From: an uncultured Verrucomicrobiales bacterium
GTDB lineage: Bacteria > Verrucomicrobiota > Verrucomicrobiia > Verrucomicrobiales > Akkermansiaceae
Length of the DNA stretch: 47,653 nt
NCBI GenBank assembly: GCA_938008215.1
Contig: CALLLS010000014.1
Coordinates: 1 to 47,653 of the forward strand
Reading direction: 5' to 3'
How positions within the stretch are numbered: position 1 is the stretch's first letter; the number at the start of each line of letters is the position of its first letter. The position numbers and the translations under genes were made by a program. Below are positions 1-46,245 of the stretch, piece by piece. The notes below the pieces were generated by a model. That model worked only from the letters and a program-made list of their open reading frames with translations, was not told the DNA's origin and searched no databases.

Positions 1-416
1 TGCTGGCTTTACGAGAAATAAGATCATCTAGTTCATGGTAAACATTCTTTAAGTCACTCCCTTTCACGGTGTTATACTTATTCTTTATCTCCGCTATAAT
101 TTGGCGCTCTTCATTAAGTAAATCTACTTGCCCTCCTGTGCCTAAATCATTCCAGCCGCTAACGCTCCCTAAAACTGTTTGATGAAAAAGTCCTATTATT
201 ACTAACGCTTTTTTGACTTTGGCGATGGAGCTCAGATTTCTTCCATTCATCATAGTTCAAATTAAATCCAGAGATCTCAAATAACGGAGAAAATGGATCG
301 ATGACATTCTTATTAAATTTCTTTAACGATGCGCTCTGAACGTCATTCGCTTTTAGCAGTAGGTTATCTACTGCTGAGAATAGATTCTGATCCTCTATAA
401 AGTTAAGGTGTGGCAT
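1..416 (-). pseudogene. Frameshifted Eco47II-family type II restriction endonuclease, 3' end outside window
   Basis: The gene reads leftwards from an ATG at 416. The first frame (MPHLNFIEDQN...) stays open to a TAG at 159, but recognisable sequence shifts to a second frame near 209-214, a run of six T on the plus strand. With one base fewer, the reading continues through IGLFHQTVLGSVSGWNDLG, then VDLLNEERQIIAEIKNKYN, to the window edge. D...EIK looks like a PD-(D/E)xK nuclease core. From memory, both parts resemble the Eco47II restriction endonuclease family; the precise cleavage specificity is not claimed. The partner methyltransferase would be expected beyond the left edge. The homopolymer position means a sequencing error or a phase-variable tract is possible instead of true decay. 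Confidence 0.72.
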
Positions 417-508: not shown

Positions 509-1777
509 TTAAGCAAAGGACTTAGCGAGAGCCTGCACGGCTTTCTCTTCTAAGGCATCATGATTAAGCTTTTTAAAGACATCTGCACAGAATCCTTCCG
601 CGATGATTTGGCGGGCAGCATCTGCTGAGATTCCACGTGCTTGGAGGTAGAAGATTTCTTCTTCGCTCACTTGGGCTGAGGTGGATCCGTGGGAACAAGC
701 CACTTGATCCGCATTAATCTCTAGTCCAGGCATGGAGTTCGCCTCACAAACATCACTCATGAGGAGATTTCTGCAGGTTTGATACGCGTCCGTGTGGTGC
801 GCACCTTCATCTACGAAGATAATCCCTGAAAAGATGGTCTTAGCCTTATCGTACAGCGTATTCTTATAGAGTAGCTCACTGTAGCAATGCGGGCTCGCAT
901 GGTGCTGGAATGTTCTTTGGTCGATCTCTTGTTCACCATGTGGCACAGAAACAGAGAGGATCTTACAACGGGCGTCTCTGCCATCTACAGTAGAGTAAAA
1001 CTCATCTCTCACCCATTCTGATCCCGTATGTAAGACGGCAGTGGTAGAATCTGCTCCTTCTCCCGTGTGGGACTCGCCTAGACGAATAAGCTGGCTTTTA
1101 ACGTTCAGCTCTTGAGTGCAAAGGTATTTAAAGTGAGCTCCGTTTTCTACTTTGATGTCAGAGACTGATAGAACGGTTGAAGCATCTTCCCCATTTGTTG
1201 ATTTATAGCTTTCCACGATGGAAGCATGAGAGTTTTTCCCTGCTACGACGTGGAGGTAGGTATGAGAACGTCCTGCTCCTGTGAAGAGGTGGACGATTTC
1301 GATCGGCTGTTCCACTTTCACACCATCACCAATAGAGATGATCGCTCCGTCCTCTAAGGATGCGCGGTGAAAGGCAGCTAATTTTTCAGAGCCCAGCTTA
1401 CCTTGCATGGGAGGAATAGCGCTTTCTAAATAATCACTGACCTCATGGATGGCACGGTTTAAGGGTAGAGCAACTAATCCTTCTGGTGTGTCTCCTTCGA
1501 TACTCATGCAATACCCGTTCACAAAGGTGAAGCGAATCACGCCTTCTGGAGCGGGCTCTATATCCAACTCCATTCCTTCTTCATCGGTAAGCGGAATTTC
1601 AGTGATTTGGGCTTTCTTAGGTTTCCCAAAGCGCCAATTCTCATTCTTTTTCGTCGGGTGATCTAACCCTTGGAAATCCGTTTGTCCTTTAGCACGGAGG
1701 CTATTGAACCACTCTGGGGCATCTGGGATAGCGTCTCCTGGCGCAGTGGTGAATTCTTCTTCTAATACAGCTGACAT
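509..1777 (-). CDS. sufD: Fe-S cluster assembly protein SufD
   Basis: SufD is a scaffold subunit of the cytoplasmic SufBCD complex, which builds iron-sulfur clusters. The 422-residue length matches the family. The right-handed beta-helix core ends in the conserved C-terminal stretch with ACSHGST (residues 360-366, containing the family's key histidine) followed by QVSEEEIFYLQARGIS. That last segment is shared with SufB and marks the two as paralogues. It is the last gene of the fur-sufC-sufB-sufD operon, 20 bases after sufB, and is followed by a probable terminator. No cysteine desulfurase (SufS) or SufE/SufU gene lies alongside, so the sulfur donor must be encoded elsewhere. Confidence 0.95.
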   Translation of the reverse strand: MSAVLEEEFTTAPGDAIPDAPEWFNSLRAKGQTDFQGLDHPTKKNENWRFGKPKKAQITEIPLTDEEGMELDIEPAPEGVIRFTFVNGYCMSIEGDTPEGLVALPLNRAIHEVSDYLESAIPPMQGKLGSEKLAAFHRASLEDGAIISIGDGVKVEQPIEIVHLFTGAGRSHTYLHVVAGKNSHASIVESYKSTNGEDASTVLSVSDIKVENGAHFKYLCTQELNVKSQLIRLGESHTGEGADSTTAVLHTGSEWVRDEFYSTVDGRDARCKILSVSVPHGEQEIDQRTFQHHASPHCYSELLYKNTLYDKAKTIFSGIIFVDEGAHHTDAYQTCRNLLMSDVCEANSMPGLEINADQVACSHGSTSAQVSEEEIFYLQARGISADAARQIIAEGFCADVFKKLNHDALEEKAVQALAKSFA

Positions 1778-1797
1778 TTCAAAAATAGTTTAATGGT

Positions 1798-3243
1798 TTA
1801 CCCTACAGATCCTTCCATTTCTAGCTCGATCAAGCGCTTAAGCTCCACGCTATATTCCATGGGGAATTCGCGTGCTAGATCGTTAATAAAGCCGTTCACC
1901 GCTAAGGACATGGCTGCTGCCTCAGAAATTCCACGCTGTTGCATGTAAAAGAGCATTTCTTCTGATACTTGGGATACACTCGCCTCATGTTGTGTGGCAT
2001 GTTGGTTTCCGCGCACCGTGATGGCGGGGAAGGTATCAGTACGGGAGTGTGAGTTAATGAGCAGAGCATCACACTCTGTATTGTTCTTACACCCTTTTAA
2101 ATTTTTAGGAATGTGGACTTGCCCTCGATAGGTGGAACGTCCTTTACCAAGTGAAATGGACTTAGAAACGACGTTTGAAGTCGTTTCATCTGCAGCGTGG
2201 ATCATCTTGGCACCAGTGTCTTGCTCCTGTCCGTCAGATGCGAGAGCGATGGAGATCACTTCACCACGTGCCTTACGTCCTTTCATGACGACACCAGGGT
2301 ATTTCATGGTGAGACGAGACCCAATGTTACAATCAATCCAACGCACTTCTGCATTTTCATGTGCTACACCACGTTTAGTCACGAGGTTAAAGACGTTCGA
2401 GGACCAGTTCTGGACGGTGATGTATTGGATCTTAGCGCCTTTCATAGCGACAAGCTCCACGACCGCCGAGTGAAGGGTGGCGGTCTCAAACTTAGGAGCG
2501 GTACAACCTTCCATGTAAGTAATCTCTGCACCTTCATCAGCGATAATCAGTGTTCGTTCAAACTGCCCAAAGTTCTCTGAGTTGATTCGGAAATACGCCT
2601 GAAGAGGAGCATCTAATTTTAAGCCCTTGGGGACATAGATAAAGGAACCCCCGGAGAAAACGGCACTGTTGAGGGCAGAGAACTTATTATCACCAGTAGG
2701 AATGACCTTACCAAACCATGGTCTAAAGATTTCCTCATGCTCACGTAAACCCTCAGTCGAGTTGACAAAAATAACCCCTTTCTTCTCTAAATCTTCTTTG
2801 ATGTTCGAGTATGAAGTCTCTGAATCATACTGTGCTTCTACTCCGGCGAGGAAAGCACGTTCTTGCTGAGGAACTCCTAACCTTTCAAACGTTTCTAAAA
2901 CCTCAGGTGGCACATCATCCCAGCTACGCTTAGGAGCTTGTCCATCGGAAAGGTAATAACGAATCTTATCAAAATCGATGTTTTCTAGATCTTTAGAAGC
3001 CCAATTCGTGGGAAGTGGCTTACTTTCAAATACTTCTAGTGCACGATGGCGGAATTCACGGATCCAGTCCTTTTCCTTCTTAACACCAGAAATGTAATCA
3101 ACGGTGTCCTTGGTGAGCCCTACCCCGGCATCATACTTGTGATTCTCAGGAAAGGAGAAATCTCCGATAGAGCGATCAATATCAATGGCGTCTTGCGTCT
3201 CGTCATCGAGAACCGCTGAGTCGTTTAAATCGTAAGCAGACAT
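1798..3243 (-). CDS. sufB: Fe-S cluster assembly protein SufB
   Basis: SufB is the main scaffold of the SufBC2D complex. The 481 residues match the family. Visible landmarks are EGCTAP at 245-250, followed by the conserved [19 protein letters not shown] region, and the C-terminal [19 protein letters not shown] block shared with SufD. The start at 3243 lies 5 bases after the sufC stop, which indicates translational coupling. The order fur-sufC-sufB-sufD differs from the sufABCDSE order of E. coli and lacks A, S and E. Confidence 0.97.
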
Positions 3244-3248
3244 CGTAT

Positions 3249-3998
3249 TTATGCTAATGCAGGTTCTTTTAAGAATTCATACCCGCTCGCTTCTAGTTCT
3301 AGGGCAAGTTCTTTACCGCCACTTTTCACGATCTGACCGTCTGCCATTACGTGAACCACATCTGGCTGGATGTAATCTAAAAGTCTTTGGTAGTGTGTAA
3401 TAACAAGGAAACCTCGCTCTGAAGAACGCATGGAGTTCACTCCCTTAGCGACTACTTTCATGGCATCGATGTCTAAACCAGAATCCGTTTCATCAAGGAT
3501 ACAGAACTTAGGGTCTAACATCATCATTTGAAGGATTTCATTACGCTTCTTCTCTCCGCCAGAGAATCCCTCATTTACGGCACGAGCTGTGAATTTACGA
3601 TCCATTTCGAGGATGTCCATCTTAGCGTAAAGATCTTTATAATAAGCTACAGCATCTAGCTCTTCACCTTTGGGAAGCCTTGCTTGTAGAGCTGCACGAA
3701 TAAAGTTAGCGTTAGAAACTCCAGGAACTTCTGCTGGGTATTGAAAGGCAAGAAAGATACCCGCTCGTGAGCGCTCATCGATTTCCATTTCAAGAATATC
3801 TTCTCCATTTAAAGTTACGGAGCCACCATTGACTTCGTAATCGTCATGACCGGCGATGACCTTTGAAAGGGTTGATTTCCCTGATCCGTTAGGTCCCATG
3901 ATTGCATGAACCTCTCCTTTGGGGATTTCTAAGTTTAACCCCTTTAAAATAGGAGTGTCATCTATACTTGCTTTTAAGTTACTAACTACGAGGCTCAT
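3249..3998 (-). CDS. sufC: Fe-S cluster assembly ATPase SufC
   Basis: SufC is the ABC-type ATPase that drives SufB/SufD remodelling during cluster assembly. It is cytoplasmic and not part of a transporter. Walker [10 protein letters not shown] is at 35-43, signature FSGGEKKR at 145-152, and Walker B with D-loop [11 protein letters not shown] at 166-176. The motif [11 protein letters not shown] is typical of SufC rather than of transport ATPases. The 249-residue length is standard. It begins 4 bases after the fur-like gene ends and precedes sufB by 5 bases. Confidence 0.97.
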
Positions 3999-4002
3999 TT
4001 GT

Positions 4003-4407
4003 CTATTGTTTTAAAAATCCTTTAATATTCAGTTCTAAGTTTTCAATCACCGCACCTTGTGGGAGATCGAGAAATTGCGTTAGATCAACATCAGGCTTAA
4101 ACTTCACGTCTATGATGTCACCAGTTGACTGATCGTGAAAGTGTCCATGTTCGCAAAGGTTTGCGCAATACCTGCTTGGTTCGCGATCTATATTCACCTG
4201 CTTTACTACATCATGACTAACAAGTGCGTCTAAACAATTGTAGATAGTAGCTAGAGAGACACTTGAAAGTTCGTTCTGTGCTCGTTCAAATATAGTCTGA
4301 GCGGTAGGGTGATCTCTTTCTTCTAATAAAACATCATATACTACCTTACGCTGTTTAGTCATGCGTAAGCCATTATTTATCTCAAGTGTAGTGTTAGAAT
4401 CCGACAC
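4003..4407 (-). CDS. Fur-family transcriptional regulator heading the suf operon
   Basis: A 134-residue Fur/PerR-type repressor with an N-terminal winged helix ([27 protein letters not shown], then [12 protein letters not shown]) and a metal-binding dimerisation half with histidines at H87, H89 and H91. The start codon read is GTG at 4407; the first in-frame ATG is at residue 16, too late to keep the whole N-terminus. The structural-zinc CxxC pair usually found just after the histidine cluster is absent (DQST instead), and there is no C-terminal CxxC, so the protein would not carry the classical cysteine zinc site. It is first in the operon with sufCBD and has a palindromic operator in its own leader. 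This suggests it senses iron, peroxide or cluster status and controls both itself and suf. Whether it acts as Fur, PerR or an Fe-S-type regulator cannot be read from sequence. Confidence 0.88.
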
Positions 4408-4450
4408 GGCAAAGTAGACTACTCATCAAATCTTCCTGCGCAAGTCTTTT

Positions 4451-4465
4451 TTAGAACTATTCTAA
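4451..4465 (-). promoter_or_regulatory. Fur/PerR-type operator upstream of fur-sufCBD
   Basis: TTAGAACTATTCTAA is a perfect 6-3-6 inverted repeat, and a 7-1-7 repeat with one mismatch. Its layout is like the PerR box (TTATAATnATTATAA) and half of a classical Fur box. It lies 44-58 bases upstream of the regulator's GTG start, where a repressor of the fur-suf transcript would bind. The overlapping TAGAAT on the minus strand could serve as a -10 element, but no good -35 is evident. Confidence 0.55.
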
Positions 4466-4518
4466 ATTTGCTACACTAATTATCTAAACTGGTAGTGAAG
4501 ATAAAATGAGAATATTAC

Positions 4519-5682
4519 TTAAAAGAATGTTCTGAAGCCTGCGGAGATAGAAACTGCGTCATCGTCAGCTAGATTTGTGTCGTTCACCTTATCATATTCT
4601 ACCCCTAAAAGAATCTTAAGGTTATCTTCTATAAAATAGTAATTGAAACCTAAATAGGCGTTAAATGCGGTTTCTCCTCCTACAAGAGGATTATCAACGA
4701 CACTACTACTCCTTGAGTAACGATTACTAGAATCTGCTACACCACCTTCTCCGCCGTAATAGGAAACTCTTCCCACAAGCTCTAAGTTTTTATTAATAGG
4801 CTTATAAGCTAAGATATTGCCCCCAAAATAGGAGTCTCCTTCTAAAGTTTCACCACCGGCAATATTATAAATCACGGTAGCCTCATTATGTTCGGTAACA
4901 TAGGCTACTGAGTATGCAAAATTATCATTTGAAGCGAGTGCTGGAGCATTTTCGTCAGCATCTATAGTTTTTACAAAGTCAACAAGAAGCCTGCCTCCAG
5001 GAATGCCAAATCCGGTGCTAGCGAAAAGGAATGATCCCCTTTCGCGTTCTTCCCAGAAATCAAATTCTATATCTCTGCCGTTCGAGAAAAAACCTAATGA
5101 ATAATCCACTCCCTTAGCACTCGCATTCACAAGAACTCCCGTAGAGTTAAATGGACGAATTTCACCATCTTGGAGGCGTGTCCGCGAGACGGTTTTCATT
5201 TCATTAGAGGAATAATGAACTTCTTGACCTATATTGATCTTTTTCTTTCCAATAATGAGATCTAATTTATCAAAATAGTTGAGTTTAAAAAGCCCTGCTA
5301 GATCAGCAGTGAAACCTACATCATCCCAACCATCATAAGTGAATAAATCTCCACTATGGAGATTGTTTATGTCTCCATTATCGAGATTTATATTTCCTTT
5401 AAAATTAAAGTAATTGAGAAAGTCTATATCAGACCCTAGCCTTGTACGGCGAAGCTCGTATTCATCATTACTTTTACCATCCAAGAATACATATCCTGCA
5501 TGGTAGTGCAAACGCCCATAAAAGCGGACTTTCTGTATGTATTTATTCTCTGAATTTGTGTATAGAGTGCCACCTTCTTGAAGAAGCTTTTTGAAGTCAT
5601 ATTGGCTTTCAAATGCGGATAAATTCGTAGCTCCTGTGACAATAGCTAGTGCAACAACTTTTACTAATTTTTTAGTATTCAT
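4519..5682 (-). CDS. Outer-membrane porin, phosphate-selective porin O/P-like
   Basis: A 387-residue secreted beta-barrel protein. The first ~23 residues form a signal peptide (MNTKKLVKVVALAIVTGATNLSA). The body consists of alternating short amphipathic strands with motifs such as RVSYYGGEG, AYLGFNYYF and LGVEYDKVND. The last residues, SAGFRTFF, end in phenylalanine, the standard signal for outer-membrane barrel insertion. The pattern RRTRLGSDIDFLNYFNFKG resembles the OprO/OprP porin family, so anion or small-solute passage is plausible, but substrate cannot be assigned. It lies 111 bases upstream of the fur gene on the same strand. Confidence 0.75.
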   Translation of the reverse strand: MNTKKLVKVVALAIVTGATNLSAFESQYDFKKLLQEGGTLYTNSENKYIQKVRFYGRLHYHAGYVFLDGKSNDEYELRRTRLGSDIDFLNYFNFKGNINLDNGDINNLHSGDLFTYDGWDDVGFTADLAGLFKLNYFDKLDLIIGKKKINIGQEVHYSSNEMKTVSRTRLQDGEIRPFNSTGVLVNASAKGVDYSLGFFSNGRDIEFDFWEERERGSFLFASTGFGIPGGRLLVDFVKTIDADENAPALASNDNFAYSVAYVTEHNEATVIYNIAGGETLEGDSYFGGNILAYKPINKNLELVGRVSYYGGEGGVADSSNRYSRSSSVVDNPLVGGETAFNAYLGFNYYFIEDNLKILLGVEYDKVNDTNLADDDAVSISAGFRTFF

Positions 5683-5810
5683 ATTTCTTGTATGAGATGC
5701 GCAACAGAAATCACAGCTCTAGACATTTGACAATGGAGTATCGCTTAAAAAATTTCGTTTCATAGGTATGCGATCTTATAAATATGGAAATTGAATATTT
5801 CAGTCAGGGT

Positions 5811-6023
5811 TTATACACATTGATGAGAGAGTTATTTATTTAATGAGTAGAAAACTCTTCTTCTTCTACATGTGAATAACACTTAAAAAAGATTGTTCTT
5901 CATTCTAGCTATAGACGTTCCACACGTTAATAATAGTGTAGAGTAAAGGTAGAAAAACCTTCTCACTTGGTAAGAACTTCATTTGTGAACAACTCTGGAT
6001 AACTTTAAGATGCTTTATTCACA
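5811..6023. other. Cluster of DnaA-box-like sites in a 365-bp AT-rich gap: candidate replication origin
   Basis: The gap 5683-6047 has no gene. It holds three exact matches to TTATNCACA: TTATACACA at 5811-5819 (plus), TTATTCACA at 5871-5879 (minus) and TTATTCACA at 6015-6023 (plus). Two one-mismatch sites are also present on the minus strand: TTGTTCACA at 5984-5992 and TTATCCAGA at 5994-6002. The flanks are AT-rich, with runs such as TTTAAGCG and TTATTTATTTAATG. This is the density expected of a DnaA-binding region. No dnaA, dnaN, gidA or hemB gene is adjacent, and genes on both sides read leftwards, so origin function is inferred from the boxes alone. The left part of the gap must also hold the porin promoter. 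Confidence 0.45.
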
Positions 6024-6047
6024 GACTTTCTCGCAATTCTTAACAAC

Positions 6048-31622: not shown

Positions 31623-33089
31623 CTACTCAATATGCGTCTTCTCTTGCTCCTCTGAAACAGATTCAGCAAGGGAAAGCTTTATGACGGTATCGTATTGATT
31701 GATGGCTTTTTCAGGGAGCGTGAAGGTAAGGGCTTCTCCATCTTGAGCGAAGGTGACAGCCTCTCCATTTTCAAGGAAGGTGGCGGAGTCTACTTTTGCA
31801 GAGAGTCCATAGAGATTTATCTCACCCGCGTTCCAATCCAGCACGTGCACATAGAGTGATTTTCCATTTTTACTGACTGATACATCTCCCCACTCAGGCT
31901 TAGCCTCTAGCGGATTACGGCGTGTGTTGTAAATCGATTCACCATTCGCTTCAAGCCATTCACCCATTGTTTTATAGATTCTTACCGCTTCAGGATCGAG
32001 CTTCCCGTTCCCCATGGGGCCATTGTTGACGAGGGAGTTACCGCCAGCACATACAGTATTGACGAAGCGGTGAATCATTTCCTCTGGGGTGTGGTAATAG
32101 TGTTTGCCCTTTTTCTTGTATCCAAAGGAGGAGCTGACACTGTCTGGGGACTCGACGTAGAGAGGGAGTTTCTTGGTTGGGATCTCCTTATCACCAATCG
32201 ATATGTAATCGAAGAGCTCTAGATTCTCTTGCTTCACCACACCTTTGCCACGTTGAATGATACGAGAATTAATAATGCAGTTAGGAAGGTGCTTACGGAT
32301 GACATCGCTGAAGGGCTTCGCGCGCTCATAGGTCATATCCACAGGAGTGTCATACCAAACGAGATCCAGCGGATACTTCGTTACCAGTTCTTCCATTTGC
32401 TTGATGCTCTTACCCTCTAGGTAGCTATCGAAGTCTTGCTTATAGTCTTCTGGGAGGTCTGGGTGCAGTTCATGGAGCTTTGTCCTATAGTTGAGATACG
32501 GCGCGTCTGGTTCGTCCCAATCTTGCGCGTGGGAATAGTAAACCCCAAACTTGAGACCTTCTGCATCACAGGCATCGCAAAGCTCCTTTACGAGGTCTCG
32601 CTTGAATGGAGTATGATCGTGAATATTATAATCGCTTACGTCTGAATCAAATAGAGCGAACCCATCATGGTGTTTAGAGGTAATGACCACGTATTTAATT
32701 CCACAGTCCTTGAAGGTCTTAGCCCATTCCTGCGCATTAAACTCGGATGGATTAAAGGATTTCGCGAGTTCTCTGTATTCTTCTACTGGAATCTTAGCGG
32801 AATGCTGAATCCACTCTGAATACCGGTGCTGTGATCCGCGTCCCTTATATTCTCCTTCTTGCGTGGAATAGACCCCGAAGTGAATGAAGGCACCAAACTT
32901 GGCGTCCGTGAACCATTTATCGAGGCGATCAATGGAATCCGGCGTCTGCTTTAAGTCATCAGAAAAGCGATACTCAAAGGCTTCCTCTGGCTTGGGTTTT
33001 CTTGGCTCATGCTTAGTCTCAGCAAAAGAAAGAGAGACCAAGGCACAGGAAAATGCAGGTAAGATAAGGAGAGGTTTAAAGAGCTTCAA
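31623..33089 (-). CDS. Secreted GH29 alpha-L-fucosidase 1
   Basis: A 488-residue exported glycoside hydrolase removing alpha-L-fucose from glycans. Signal peptide at 1-23 (KPLLILPAFSCALVSLSFAE). GH29 blocks: AKFGAFIHFGVYS (H70), EWIQHSAKIPVEEY, SKHHDGFALF (139-147), GVYYSHAQDWD and the nucleophile segment LVWYDTP (D247). The C-terminal ~90 residues form the usual beta-sandwich. The start read is TTG at 33089, since no in-frame ATG gives a signal peptide. It follows the other fucosidase gene by about 20 bases, so the two form an operon. Confidence 0.87.
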   Translation of the reverse strand: MKLFKPLLILPAFSCALVSLSFAETKHEPRKPKPEEAFEYRFSDDLKQTPDSIDRLDKWFTDAKFGAFIHFGVYSTQEGEYKGRGSQHRYSEWIQHSAKIPVEEYRELAKSFNPSEFNAQEWAKTFKDCGIKYVVITSKHHDGFALFDSDVSDYNIHDHTPFKRDLVKELCDACDAEGLKFGVYYSHAQDWDEPDAPYLNYRTKLHELHPDLPEDYKQDFDSYLEGKSIKQMEELVTKYPLDLVWYDTPVDMTYERAKPFSDVIRKHLPNCIINSRIIQRGKGVVKQENLELFDYISIGDKEIPTKKLPLYVESPDSVSSSFGYKKKGKHYYHTPEEMIHRFVNTVCAGGNSLVNNGPMGNGKLDPEAVRIYKTMGEWLEANGESIYNTRRNPLEAKPEWGDVSVSKNGKSLYVHVLDWNAGEINLYGLSAKVDSATFLENGEAVTFAQDGEALTFTLPEKAINQYDTVIKLSLAESVSEEQEKTHIE

Positions 33090-33450: not shown

Positions 33451-34875
33451 CTATGTGATCTTGGCATTCTTTGCCTCTGCAAACTGGGCGTAGATTTCAG
33501 TCCCCCGGTTAGGATCCACCGCATAAGTGGTCTCTACTTCTGGCTCTGCAGGGAAATCCAGCTGGATGACGGAGGCGATGCTTTCTGGCGCAATTTTAGG
33601 AATGTCGATGATGACCCATCCACCGTTTTCTTCATAATTTAAGGAGGTGTTATCTTCACCACCTAAGAAGGAGGCAGAAGAAAGCTTAGTTTTCACACCT
33701 GGGAGGTAGAGCTTACCAGAGGTCGGCCAGTCTAGGACAGTGAGGAAGAGGCTTTTATCCTTCTTGGTGACATCTCCCCAAGGTAACGCGTGCCCCCATG
33801 GAGATCCCTCTACATTATAAACGACTTGAGGGTATTTCTGAATCCATTCGCCGACTTTTTTTAAGGATTCTTGTGCGCGCTCAGGAATCGCTCCCGTTCC
33901 GTCTGGTCCTACGTTCAGCATATACGTGCCTCCTCTACCTACGCAGGAAATGAGACGGTGTAAGACCTTGTGCGGACTCTTCCAATTCTCGTCATACCAT
34001 GCGTAAGCCCAAGAATCATTCGTGGTATCCACACTCTCCCACATGCCCTCAACATTATGATGCGGCACTTCCATGTCTCCCAATGTTTGGTAATCTCCTA
34101 AGTTATGCCCCGCGCGTCCAGAGACTAAAGCATTCGGCTGATGCTCTCTCACTACCGAGACGAGCTGCTCGACGTGCTCCTTAGGCATTCCACCTGGGGT
34201 ATCGAACCAGATTAGCTCTATCTGACCATACTCGGTAACGAGCTGGGTAACTTCTGGGAGACACTTCTTTTTAAAGTAATCTTCAAAGGTCGCAGGATTC
34301 CCCTCTGCATCCACGGTTGGTCCATTAGTTCCTCCTGGAAAGGTCCAGTCTTGGTTATGGGAGTAGTAGAAACCTAGCCCGATGCCTTCTTGTTTACAAG
34401 CATCTGCTAATTCTCTCATCGGGTCTCTTCCCCATGATGTGGCATCTACGATATTAAAGGAGTCCGCCTTAGAGTGAAACATCGCAGAGCCATCGTGGTG
34501 CTTAGCCGTGATCACGATGTATTTCATCCCTGCATCTTTCGCGAGCTTAACGATCTCCATGGCGTCAAAATTTACAGGGTCAAAGGCCTTCGCTTGTTTC
34601 TTATATTCTTCTGGCGGAATGTTCGCCATTCTTGGGTTCATGATCCATTCCCCGATCCGATAATAGGTTTTCCCATCTACCTTATTCCCGAAATTAGAAT
34701 ACAAACCCCAGTGGATAAACATCGCGTAATTTCCTTCATCGAAGAGCTGCCCACGCTCCGCATTCTCTGCGCGAAGCTTAACAGTGGTTTCCCCCCACAT
34801 TTCATTCATTCCTTCAGCGAAGGACATAGAGCTAGAGAGTAAGGCCGACGTAATGAGTGTTTTGATGACGCGCAT
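33451..34875 (-). CDS. Secreted GH29 alpha-L-fucosidase 2, ended early by an in-frame TAG
   Basis: 474 residues up to a TAG; signal peptide at 1-20 (MRVIKTLITSALLSSSMSFA). GH29 blocks: NYAMFIHWGLYSNFG (H55), GEWIMNPRMANIPPEEY, TAKHHDGSAMF (123-133), FYYSHNQDWTFPGG and nucleophile segment LIWFDTPGG (D225). The catalytic barrel and the following sandwich domain are complete. The next in-frame 113 codons encode a further domain, so the ancestral enzyme was about 588 residues. The shortened protein may still be active but would lack that accessory domain. It is first in the fucosidase pair. Confidence 0.85.
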   Translation of the reverse strand: MRVIKTLITSALLSSSMSFAEGMNEMWGETTVKLRAENAERGQLFDEGNYAMFIHWGLYSNFGNKVDGKTYYRIGEWIMNPRMANIPPEEYKKQAKAFDPVNFDAMEIVKLAKDAGMKYIVITAKHHDGSAMFHSKADSFNIVDATSWGRDPMRELADACKQEGIGLGFYYSHNQDWTFPGGTNGPTVDAEGNPATFEDYFKKKCLPEVTQLVTEYGQIELIWFDTPGGMPKEHVEQLVSVVREHQPNALVSGRAGHNLGDYQTLGDMEVPHHNVEGMWESVDTTNDSWAYAWYDENWKSPHKVLHRLISCVGRGGTYMLNVGPDGTGAIPERAQESLKKVGEWIQKYPQVVYNVEGSPWGHALPWGDVTKKDKSLFLTVLDWPTSGKLYLPGVKTKLSSASFLGGEDNTSLNYEENGGWVIIDIPKIAPESIASVIQLDFPAEPEVETTYAVDPNRGTEIYAQFAEAKNAKIT

Positions 34876-42507: not shown

Positions 42508-45500
42508 CTATTGAAAGCTTACTTGCGGTAACGCTTTTCGGAGCTGTTTTTCTAGAGCAGGGTCAGAGGGGGCACCTTTTTGGAGTGCTTCGCGGTAGTT
42601 CTGAAGCGCTTCATTGTACTTTCCTTGGTTGATGAGGAGGAGTGCGAGGTTATATAGTGGCTCAGTGAGTGTGTGGCTAATTTTCAAGGCTTTACGCAAA
42701 TGCGTTTCGCTGGATTTAAGGTCGTTTTGGTCTGCCATAAGAGCGCCCAGGAAAATATGAGCCTTAGCATTATTGGGATCTGCACTAAGGCATTGGAGAA
42801 AGTGCTCAGTAGCTTTTTGGTCGTTTCCTTGTAGGTATTGGGCGTAACCTAGCATTTGAAGCGCATAAGGAAGTCCGTCATCGCCTCTCATGGCGAGGGC
42901 ATCTTCGAACGATGTAATAGCGCCTTCTAAGTCTTCTGTTGAACCACTTGAGCTTTGAGCTTTCCGGAGGCGCGCAACTCCTAGGTTAAGCATGCTAGGG
43001 ATGTGTCCTGGATGGTCATCTAAGTTAATTTTAAAGAACTCTTCTGCGGCTAGGTAATGCCCTTTTTTATAAGCGGAACGTCCGAGCTTATCGTGTACAT
43101 TTAAGCGTTGATTTAAGGCCTGCTCTGCGCGCTTACGTTCTTCTGGGAGGGCACGATCCGTAAAGCGAAACTCTCCGTCGGCGTCAGGGTTAGCAAGTAG
43201 TCTTTTTTGATCCTCGGAGAGAACGAGCTCCTGCGTCTCTTGCAAATCTAAGGCAGCGAGAAAATTGGTATCATCAATACCGAGGTGCTTCAATTCTTCT
43301 AGAATGAGTGAGCGCGTAATTTGCCTGTTTTTTTGTAACTTCACGTTCTTTTGCAAAAGATCTTTAAGCATAGCGACTTCTTCTGAGCTGTATTGCGCAT
43401 CGGTCGCTTCTTCTACTAGTTTTAGCTCAGCTTCTGCATCTTGAAGTTTTCTCACTAGCTTGTCTCCACGCAGGTTACTGAGCTCAAGCTGATGTTTTTT
43501 TTTAATTAAATCTGTTCTTATAAGGGCATATTGCTTTCTCGCGATGAGAAGGTCTTCCTTTTCTGTATTCTTATTTTTGAGAGCCTCTTCAAAACGTTTT
43601 CTTGAGGCTCTCAAATCTGCTTTTAATGCAAGATTTTCTTTTTTTAGGAGGTCTTCCTTTTTGTCACTTCCGAGAAGGAGCTTAAGTTGCTGGTGCTCTA
43701 CTAAGAGGTTATCATGCTTACCCTTTACGTCTTTATAATGCTCTTTTGTTTCATCTACTAGTTTTTGTAGCTGGATGACCTTTGCTTCTTCTGAGGCAAG
43801 CTGGCGGTTAACCTGAGCGAGTTCTTTATTCTGTTGTGTGAGCCGCTCCCTTTGGGACTTAATAACAACTGAGGACATTTCTCTTTCCTCATCAAAGCTT
43901 ATTTCTAATCTGCTCGCTGCGACTCTAGAGGTTTCTAATTCCCTTTGCAGTTTCTTGATACGATCTAGAGCAGTGAAATACTTTGCCTCATTGCGAGAAA
44001 GGTTCAATGATAAGCTCTTTTTAGCGTTCTCGGTGTCTTGTAAATCCTCTTGGAGGGCTTCTATTTCGCTTCGTAAAGGACGAGTGAGTAGGATGCTTTT
44101 TTCTTGTTGGAGTGCCGTAATTTGATCCTGAAGTTTAACATTGGTATCTGAGGCATCTTGGAGTGCCATTAGGGAGTGGTCTTGTTGCTTACTAGCATCT
44201 TTTAATGATTGATTGAGAGTTAGGATTTTCTGCTTTGAGTAAGCTTCTTGCTCGTCTGCACTTTTGAGTGCAGTCTGGAGCTTTCCTTGAAGACTTGCTA
44301 TCGATCTTAGATTTCCTTCTGCTTGGGATCTAAGGGAGGCAATCTCATCATCGCTTTTTTGACGAATCGACTTATGGTTTTTACCAAGGTCTTCAATCTT
44401 CTGGTTTAGAGCGTTTATTCGTTTTTCCTGCACTTGAATGTTAGCAAGGTATTCGGTCCTATTTTTTTCTGTTTCTAAAAGGTATGCTCCTTTTTCTTTT
44501 TCAAGAAGCTGAGTTAGTTTTTTTACATTGGCGAATGACTCATCTCTACTCGCTTCAGCATAATTACGCTCTTTTTTAAGAGATAATTTTTCTTTATTCA
44601 GTGTGTCGACCTGGTTGCCAAATGAATCAACAGTAGTCTTTAAGGATGCTTTAAGCTGTTCATTCTCTTGATCAACTGAAGCTAGGTCTCCTTCCAGTTT
44701 CTTTCTCGCTTTTTCGGATTCTCGCTGTTGCTCTGCGATGGATTCATTTTCACCACGCAGAGAAATGAGTTCTTCCTCTAGCTTAGAAGCCTCTAGTTCT
44801 TTTTGCTTAAAGTCTAAGCTATTATCATACTTACCTTTTAATGCACTTCTGAGCGTAGAAATTTCCTCGTTGAGAGCTTCTTGACGCGCTTTAGTCTTCG
44901 CCTGCATTTCAGAGGCGTTTTTCTTAAGGAGATCATTTTCTGCATTCTTTGTATTGATAGCGCTAAGATCTTCGACTTTCTCAGTGAGTCTATTGATGTT
45001 GGTTTTCTGCTCTTGGATTTCCGCAAGATGAGCGCTTTTCTCTTTTGCAAGAAGCTGAGTTAACTTTTCTACATTGGCAATGGACTCATTTTTACTCGCC
45101 TCTACAAGGTCACGCTCTTGCTTAAGTGCTAACATTTGCTTATTGAGATCGTCCACCTGTAGGACAAAGGAGCTACCAGCATTCCCTAAGGATTTTTTAA
45201 GCTGCTCGTTCTCTAAATTAAGTGAGTCGAGTTGACCTTCTATACTTTTTCTCGCTTTCTCAGATTCTTGTTGTCGGGCTGAAATCGTTTCATTTTCACT
45301 AAGTAGAAAAGTAAGCTCTTCTTTTAGCTTGGAAGCCTCTTGCTCTTTTTGTTTAAGACCTGAGTTGGCTGTAGACATCTCTTTCAACTCGCTTTTGAGT
45401 GAAGAAATTTCCTTATGAAGAGCCTCCTGAGGTGCTTTATTTTCTCCCTGTATTTCAGAGGTATTTTTCTCAAGAAGAGCAATTTCAGCGTTCTTACTAC

Positions 45501-46245
45501 GGATCGCGCTGAGCAGCTCATCTTTAAAATCAGCTTCCTTTTGCTGCTGTTTTTTAGCATTTTCATCCAGTTGGATGCGTAGGATATTTACTTCACTTGT
45601 TAGTGCTTTTTGGCGTTTTTCGAAGTCAGACTTTTCTTTTTTTGCACGTTCTTTCTCTGCTGAGAGTTCAGCATCCTTTTTTTTCAGATCAGCTATGACT
45701 TCATTTCTAGACGCTTCTTCCTTCTCCTGTGCCTTGAGCTTACTTTGTTTATTATCAATTTGCTCTTGAATGTCTGCTAAGCGCTTAGTGATTTCGCTGA
45801 GCCTTTTATCGTTTTTTAGGATGTCTTGCGCCCGTTCTTTTGCTCTCTCTCCAGAATCTTTACCCTCGCTATACAGGCTGGGAGTAGCAGATGAAGGGGA
45901 GTTTTCTGACTCTTTAGCTTTAAGAGTTTCTTGTGTAAGAATGGCTACTCGGTCATATGCCTTTTTTACATAATCTGGTCTCCAGGTAGGGTAATTAACA
46001 TTGAGGGTATTGAGAAGGTGGGTGGCTTTGCTAAACTTCTCAATAGCAGAGTCATACTTTGAGTCGCTAATGAGTGCCTTACCATCACGCTCATAGATAT
46101 ACGTTTGTAAAAAGAGATCTGAGGGGTTCAGGGACGCGAGTCTATCATTTTGCCCGTATAAACTATAAAAACAAATGGAGGAGAGCGTAAGCCATAAGGA
46201 AACGCGTATGAGGTGGGAAAGATAATTTAAACGTTTTATTAACAT
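42508..46245 (-). CDS. Very long coiled-coil protein with C-terminal TPR region
   Basis: 1245 residues. A signal peptide or membrane anchor (about 12-30) is followed by a soluble helical start (about 40-120), a coiled coil of over 800 residues rich in Lys/Glu/Gln/Ser (about 135-1000), and TPR repeats at about 1045-1235 (e.g. LNLGVARLRKAQ, ALQMLGYAQYLQGNDQKATEHF, PLYNLALLLINQGKYNEALQNY). The coiled coil includes a duplicated 180-190-residue unit (see the repeat entry). The TPR end suggests protein binding; the rod could span or order an envelope compartment, but no function is known. The start overlaps the acylphosphatase gene by 7 bases. Confidence 0.8.
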   Translation of the reverse strand: MLIKRLNYLSHLIRVSLWLTLSSICFYSLYGQNDRLASLNPSDLFLQTYIYERDGKALISDSKYDSAIEKFSKATHLLNTLNVNYPTWRPDYVKKAYDRVAILTQETLKAKESENSPSSATPSLYSEGKDSGERAKERAQDILKNDKRLSEITKRLADIQEQIDNKQSKLKAQEKEEASRNEVIADLKKKDAELSAEKERAKKEKSDFEKRQKALTSEVNILRIQLDENAKKQQQKEADFKDELLSAIRSKNAEIALLEKNTSEIQGENKAPQEALHKEISSLKSELKEMSTANSGLKQKEQEASKLKEELTFLLSENETISARQQESEKARKSIEGQLDSLNLENEQLKKSLGNAGSSFVLQVDDLNKQMLALKQERDLVEASKNESIANVEKLTQLLAKEKSAHLAEIQEQKTNINRLTEKVEDLSAINTKNAENDLLKKNASEMQAKTKARQEALNEEISTLRSALKGKYDNSLDFKQKELEASKLEEELISLRGENESIAEQQRESEKARKKLEGDLASVDQENEQLKASLKTTVDSFGNQVDTLNKEKLSLKKERNYAEASRDESFANVKKLTQLLEKEKGAYLLETEKNRTEYLANIQVQEKRINALNQKIEDLGKNHKSIRQKSDDEIASLRSQAEGNLRSIASLQGKLQTALKSADEQEAYSKQKILTLNQSLKDASKQQDHSLMALQDASDTNVKLQDQITALQQEKSILLTRPLRSEIEALQEDLQDTENAKKSLSLNLSRNEAKYFTALDRIKKLQRELETSRVAASRLEISFDEEREMSSVVIKSQRERLTQQNKELAQVNRQLASEEAKVIQLQKLVDETKEHYKDVKGKHDNLLVEHQQLKLLLGSDKKEDLLKKENLALKADLRASRKRFEEALKNKNTEKEDLLIARKQYALIRTDLIKKKHQLELSNLRGDKLVRKLQDAEAELKLVEEATDAQYSSEEVAMLKDLLQKNVKLQKNRQITRSLILEELKHLGIDDTNFLAALDLQETQELVLSEDQKRLLANPDADGEFRFTDRALPEERKRAEQALNQRLNVHDKLGRSAYKKGHYLAAEEFFKINLDDHPGHIPSMLNLGVARLRKAQSSSGSTEDLEGAITSFEDALAMRGDDGLPYALQMLGYAQYLQGNDQKATEHFLQCLSADPNNAKAHIFLGALMADQNDLKSSETHLRKALKISHTLTEPLYNLALLLINQGKYNEALQNYREALQKGAPSDPALEKQLRKALPQVSFQ
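44386..45495 (-). repeat. Internal tandem duplication in the coiled-coil gene
   Basis: Residues 251-427 (KNAEIALLEKNTSE ... KVEDL; 45495-44965) and 433-620 (KNAENDLLKKNASE ... KIEDL; 44949-44386) align end to end with one 11-residue insertion (ETEKNRTEYLA) in the second. Strongly shared pieces are ESEKARK, ENEQLK and KLTQLL. Each unit is about 530-560 bp. Confidence 0.8.

What the first reader, a model, noticed from the sequence alone, without database searches (positions are those of the whole stretch)
5811..6023. Candidate chromosomal origin: five DnaA-box-like sites in about 210 bp
Three exact TTATNCACA and two one-mismatch sites on both strands fall within a gene-free AT-rich gap. A given 8-base-specified site is expected far less than once in this length, so a cluster by chance is unlikely. 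No dnaA or dnaN lies close, so this would be an origin at an unfamiliar location.
Basis: partly seen in the sequence, partly recalled or inferred. Interest (0 to 1): 0.6.

Follow-up and report, generated by a model that had tools for sequence, protein, structure and literature searches.

The report
Chromosomal replication origin of an Akkermansiaceae bacterium
This short gap is almost certainly the place where this uncultured Akkermansiaceae bacterium starts copying its chromosome: it carries an origin signature found once per genome across most of the family, at the point where strand composition flips.

Summary
Three exact and two one-mismatch DnaA boxes lie in the 365-bp gap 5683-6047. It is the only place in this draft genome (1.95 Mb, 66 exact boxes) with three exact boxes within 213 bp.

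The interpretation also holds. A sequence model built from six relatives, with the window left out, has one match in the whole genome: window 5811-5933 (E 1e-15). The same model matches 144 of 195 family genomes (12 of 16 genera), nearly always once. In three complete relatives the element sits at the GC-skew switch; in five others skew is broad or noisy.

The left end of the contig overlaps contig C27 by exactly 141 bp, and one restriction-endonuclease gene reads across the joint. With that join, cumulative GC skew has its minimum at the gap, and mnmG with three parS-like sites lies 9-12 kb away (1.5-7.5 kb in relatives). So dnaA, dnaN and ribD are elsewhere, but the mnmG-parS neighbourhood is kept. 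In both congeners the element also lies directly upstream of fur-sufCBD.

One feature stands out: the conserved AAG triplet repeat beside the box resembles a DnaA-trio but lies on the opposite strand to the canonical arrangement.

The parts
5683..6047 (.). Gene-free AT-rich gap that holds the origin (oriC)
   Evidence: Between the porin start and the UbiA-like stop; low G+C
5811..5933 (+). Left, family-conserved oriC module (match to model R1, built without the window)
   Evidence: 58.6 bits, E 2.4e-17 in the window; sole match in own genome, E 1.1e-15
5811..5819 (+). DnaA box TTATACACA, pointing into the AT-rich stretch
   Evidence: a box-like site at the same spacing in many relatives
5820..5856 (.). 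AT-rich stretch between two boxes that both point into it: putative DNA unwinding element
   Evidence: Sequence, G+C minimum; position conserved. Function inferred
5857..5868 (-). Triplet repeat TAG AAG AAG AAG (read on -), trio-like, 2 bp from the box, on the strand opposite to canonical DnaA-trios
   Evidence: 34 of 34 related loci keep it, none shows the strict canonical polarity
5871..5879 (-). DnaA box TTATTCACA next to the triplet repeat
5894..5898 (+). First TGTTC(C) repeat, 22 bp before the second; conserved, unknown binder
   Evidence: Invariant GTT in A2, conserved in A4 and in both congeners
5917..5933 (+). Second repeat GTTCCAC followed by TTAATAA; resembles half of a parS site
5984..5992 (-). 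Right module, DnaA box TTGTTCACA (one mismatch)
   Evidence: spacing 9-1-9-12-9 identical in both congeners
5994..6002 (-). Right module, DnaA box TTATCCAGA (one mismatch)
6015..6023 (+). Right module, DnaA box TTATTCACA
509..4407 (-). fur-sufCBD cluster next to the origin in all three species of the genus
4519..5682 (-). Porin gene (Porin_O_P) between oriC and fur in the window only; flank, not part of the origin
1..141 (.). Exact 141-bp overlap with the low end of contig C27 (reverse), which carries mnmG and three parS-like sites

Best explanation
The gap is oriC, the single chromosomal replication origin of this genome. Most likely mechanism: ATP-DnaA binds the strong boxes (5811, 5871, 6015) and weaker sites (5984, 5994). 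The two outer modules form a filament or loop, and DnaA is guided from box 5871-5879 over the adjacent AAG triplet repeat into the AT-rich stretch 5820-5856. That stretch opens and the helicase is loaded in both directions. Shown here: the box cluster, its uniqueness in the genome, the family-conserved element with fixed spacing, the skew minimum, and the mnmG/parS neighbourhood through the contig join. Inferred: DnaA binding, the site of unwinding, and the roles of the triplet and GTTCC repeats.
For: Box cluster far beyond chance and unique in the genome. Model R1, built without the window, hits the gap alone and gives one place per genome in most of 144 matching family genomes (of 195) across 12 of 16 genera. 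In complete relatives G028, G037 and G047 the element lies at the GC-skew sign switch. Cumulative skew over the joined contigs falls to a minimum at about 6-8 kb and rises after it. mnmG and three parS-like sites lie 9-12 kb away across a joint crossed by one reading frame; the relatives have the same neighbourhood. The layout of the right module is identical in three species. An intact-looking dnaA with a Bac_DnaA_C domain is present.
Against: No direct evidence of DnaA binding or replication start. Skew is broad or noisy in five other complete relatives (G019, G035, G119, G135, G168). The skew test in the own genome covers only 58 kb and depends on a contig join. dnaA and dnaN are elsewhere, which is common in bacteria. 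The model has no significant hit in several genera, including some small or incomplete genomes.
Confidence: 0.95

Rival explanations
1. A DnaA-titration or DnaA-regulated promoter site, such as a datA-like cluster or a DnaA-controlled porin promoter, not an origin.
For: The gap lies directly upstream of a porin gene and must hold its promoter; clusters of DnaA boxes also occur at regulatory sites (established knowledge).
Against: The element keeps its sequence while its neighbours change: ribD, an lpxD-like gene, fur-suf or the porin. It sits at the skew switch and near parS/mnmG, and nearly every matching genome has just one place.
Confidence: 0.03
2. Chance accumulation of box-like 9-mers in an AT-rich promoter gap.
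For: One-mismatch boxes are common in this window: 44 found, 37 expected.
Against: 0 of 20,000 composition-matched sequences reach the score; strong conservation in relatives.
Confidence: 0.005
3. Origin of a plasmid, a second replicon or an integrated element rather than the main chromosome.
For: Large extrachromosomal replicons exist in many bacteria (established knowledge).
Against: The contig carries core genes (mutS, tatC, truA, suf, ftsW-like). The same element is on the chromosome at the skew switch in complete one-contig genomes.
Confidence: 0.01

Closest known systems
Bacterial oriC in general
   Same: DnaA-box cluster, AT-rich stretch, skew minimum, one per chromosome, near parS
   Different: Not beside dnaA or dnaN; carries two GTTCC(AC) repeats 22 bp apart that I could not assign
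Basal unwinding system (BUS): DnaA-box, spacer, DnaA-trios (Bacillus subtilis; PMC6669920, PMC8287927)
   Same: A strong box, a short spacer, then a run of trinucleotides with a central adenine, then AT-rich DNA
   Different: The triplets read 5'-TAGAAGAAGAAG-3' on the box strand; the canonical box strand reads 5'-CTACTA...-3' (3'-GAT-5' on the other strand; PMC7561715, PMC8235120). Polarity is therefore reversed
Escherichia coli oriC (own knowledge)
   Same: Box nearest the AT-rich stretch (R1) points into it, with a pyrimidine/T-rich strand opposite the box strand
   Different: No 13-mers; different number and spacing of boxes
Akkermansia muciniphila YL44 origin placed by GC skew, parS and read coverage (PMC10197239)
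   Same: Same family; that paper places origins near parS and notes that they do not always lie at dnaA
   Different: No coordinates, boxes or element given in the text read; the present element and genus are not described there

Membership tests
Bacterial chromosomal origin (oriC) | Cluster of DnaA boxes beyond chance | tested here: met
Bacterial chromosomal origin (oriC) | AT-rich unwinding stretch next to the boxes | tested here: met
   Low G+C and conserved position; actual unwinding not tested
Bacterial chromosomal origin (oriC) | GC-skew minimum or sign switch | tested here: met
   Own 58-kb join; G028, G037, G047. Broad or noisy in five others
Bacterial chromosomal origin (oriC) | Single conserved place per chromosome in relatives | tested here: met
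Bacterial chromosomal origin (oriC) | Near parS / origin-associated genes | tested here: met
   mnmG and three parS-like sites 9-12 kb away through the 141-bp join
Bacterial chromosomal origin (oriC) | Next to dnaA or dnaN (frequent, not defining) | tested here: not met
   dnaA on C9, dnaN on C54
Bacterial chromosomal origin (oriC) | DnaA binding, strand opening, maximum of marker frequency | not testable with these tools
   Needs experiments or reads
BUS (box, spacer, DnaA-trios) | DnaA box 0-16 bp from the trios | tested here: met
   Box 5871-5879, 2 bp from the triplet repeat
BUS (box, spacer, DnaA-trios) | At least three NAN trios in canonical polarity (3'-GAT-5' opposite the box strand) | tested here: not met
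   0 of 34 loci by the strict form; 8 of 34 by the loose form, the window not among them. Reversed polarity in 34 of 34. Canonical polarity taken from PMC7561715 and PMC8235120

The most novel reading that the evidence does not exclude
The Akkermansiaceae origin uses a variant unwinding module. The DnaA-guiding triplet repeat (AAG, in some species ATG) lies in a fixed register beside the strong box but on the strand opposite to canonical DnaA-trios, together with a pair of GTTCC(AC) repeats 22 bp apart that bind an unidentified or ParB-like factor.
Probability: 0.35. Interest if true: 0.65.

Novelty: new member of a known kind. Interest (0 to 1): 0.4.

Why it matters
It gives a sequence signature for finding the replication origin in most Akkermansiaceae genomes, including fragmented ones where dnaA misleads. 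That allows growth-rate estimates from read depth and correct genome orientation. The reversed triplet repeat is a direct natural test of whether DnaA-trio polarity is universal.

Tried and rejected
(1) Using the UbiA-like gene as an anchor: it is conserved, but its flank in congeners (a RibD_C-like reductase) has no boxes, so it is a rearranged flank. (2) A tight two-box pattern also hit genus g8 inside the coding sequence of sufS (L086-L094): a coding coincidence conserved with the protein; the R1 matches in those genomes are elsewhere. (3) I first read the triplet repeat as a canonical DnaA-trio; checking the polarity against the literature and counting showed that it is reversed. (4) A full parS at the GTTCCAC repeat: only a half-site in the window; 14 of 16 in one relative (L124). 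(5) Rfam and tRNA scans of the window found nothing.

Full report
Observation. They lie in a 365-bp gap without ORFs, 5683-6047, between a porin (PF07396) and a UbiA-like membrane-protein ORF without a Pfam match. Single one-mismatch sites are not rare in this window: 44 found against 37 expected. The cluster is rare: no composition-matched simulation reached its score (0 of 20,000 gaps, 0 of 300 windows), and the rest of the window scores at most 2 against 8 here. In the whole 1.95-Mb draft genome there are 66 exact boxes, and no other three lie within 213 bp (probability 0.0014 for uniform placement).

A test independent of the boxes. A pattern search for an inverted box pair in the family led to the intergenic region between ribD and an lpxD-like gene, near dnaN and mnmG, in genus g3. 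There the box is followed by the triplet repeat TAGAAGAAGAAG. The pattern CTTCTTCTA-N(1-20)-TGTGNAYAA hits 21 of 195 family genomes, once each, and a reversed control hits 4. I aligned six relatives (genera g12, g9, g10), left the window out, and built a sequence-only model (R1). R1 finds window 5811-5933 with 58.6 bits and E 2.4e-17. It has one match in the own genome (E 1.1e-15) and matches in 144 of 195 family genomes in 12 of 16 genera; genomes with two rows mostly show the same place on both strands. Outside the family it reaches 24 further genomes of the order, more weakly.

Genus-level conservation. Record titles name the two congeners as Akkermansiaceae MAGs (JALZUI010000142.1, WTJZ01000201.1). 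In both, the element lies directly upstream of fur-sufC-sufB-sufD. The window has the same order with one porin gene in between. The right-hand module has the same layout in all three species: box, 1 bp, weak box, 12 bp, inverted box. The genes on the other side differ where they can be seen.

GC skew and gene context. Within the contig the cumulative skew turns near 6-8 kb, but only 6 kb lie to the left. The first 141 bases of the window are identical to the first 141 bases of contig C27 in reverse, the only other match in the assembly. An Eco47II-type restriction-endonuclease gene is split over the two contigs (profile 1-72 on one, 114-199 on the other), and one reading frame runs through the joint, so the join is well supported; there is a frame change inside the window part of that gene. 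Over the joined 58.5 kb, cumulative skew falls to its minimum at about 6-8 kb and then rises. On C27 lie mnmG (window coordinates about -4818 to -2938) and three parS-like sites at -6360, -4911 and -4067, each one mismatch from the pattern used. In complete relatives the element is 1.5-7.5 kb from mnmG, which carries or adjoins parS-like sites. So the ancestral neighbourhood is kept, with a restriction-modification system, an aquaporin-like gene and fur-suf in between, while ribD (C23), dnaN (C54) and dnaA (C9) are elsewhere. Among complete relatives, G028 and G037 and G047 change sign at the element. G019, G119 and G168 change sign within several hundred kb, and G035 and G135 are noisy.

Mechanism. 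Boxes at 5811 and 5871 both point into the AT-rich stretch 5820-5856. The likely course is DnaA loading at the strong boxes, a filament extending over the triplet repeat, opening of the AT-rich stretch and helicase loading; these steps are inferred. The triplet repeat is kept in fixed register in 34 of 34 loci and varies from AAG to ATG without losing its three-base period, although most of those loci were selected by a model that contains the repeat. In the canonical BUS the box strand reads 5'-CTA-3' repeats (C. difficile 5'-CACCTACTACTATTACTACTATGA-3', PMC7561715; H. pylori 5'-CTA-3', PMC8235120, where reversing the polarity blocked unwinding). Here the box strand reads 5'-TAGAAGAAGAAG-3', the reverse. 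That the canonical boxes share the CTA strand rests partly on my own knowledge. Either the family binds the other strand, or the repeat does something else. The two GTTCC(AC) repeats, 22 bp apart, are as conserved as the boxes; they resemble half parS sites, but I could not identify their binder.

Known versus new. This is a chromosomal origin, a known kind. Paper searches found no description of this element; only papers under open licences are held, and the DoriC database could not be consulted. One study placed the A. muciniphila origin by skew, parS and coverage and noted that origins do not always lie at dnaA (PMC10197239). I file it as a new member of a known kind, with the reversed triplet repeat as the open, testable oddity.

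Noticed in passing
window 159-416 (-) and contig C27 75-467 (L245): An Eco47II-type restriction endonuclease gene is split over the contig joint and changes frame inside the window part; its C5-cytosine methylase partner (MerR-like N-terminus) looks intact on C27. Possibly a broken restriction gene with a surviving methylase, about 5-8 kb from the origin.
   Followed up: partly
L086-L094 (genus g8), for example L089 959-2182: sufS in genus g8 carries a conserved pair or trio of DnaA-box-like sites inside its coding sequence (peptide VNNVIHICS); probably a coding coincidence, not tested further.
   Followed up: partly
window 5894-5898 and 5917-5933; A4 alignment: Two GTTCC(AC) repeats 22 bp apart, as conserved as the DnaA boxes across the family and resembling half parS sites; binder unknown.
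   Followed up: partly
L245 (C27) 3080-4960; L033, L053, L150, L168: parS-like sites (TGTTCCACGTGGAACA) lie inside or beside mnmG in every family genome looked at for this.
   Followed up: partly
L116, L123, L128, L131, L133, L134 (genus g10 or close): In these loci the origin element has no ribD within the fetched flank, so ribD may have been separated from the origin there too.
   Followed up: no
window 31623-33089 and 33451-34875: Two adjacent genes that look like secreted alpha-L-fucosidases (reading of the translation only, no family search run).
   Followed up: no
window 42508-46245: A 1245-residue coiled-coil protein with a TPR-like C-terminus (reading of the translation only).
   Followed up: no
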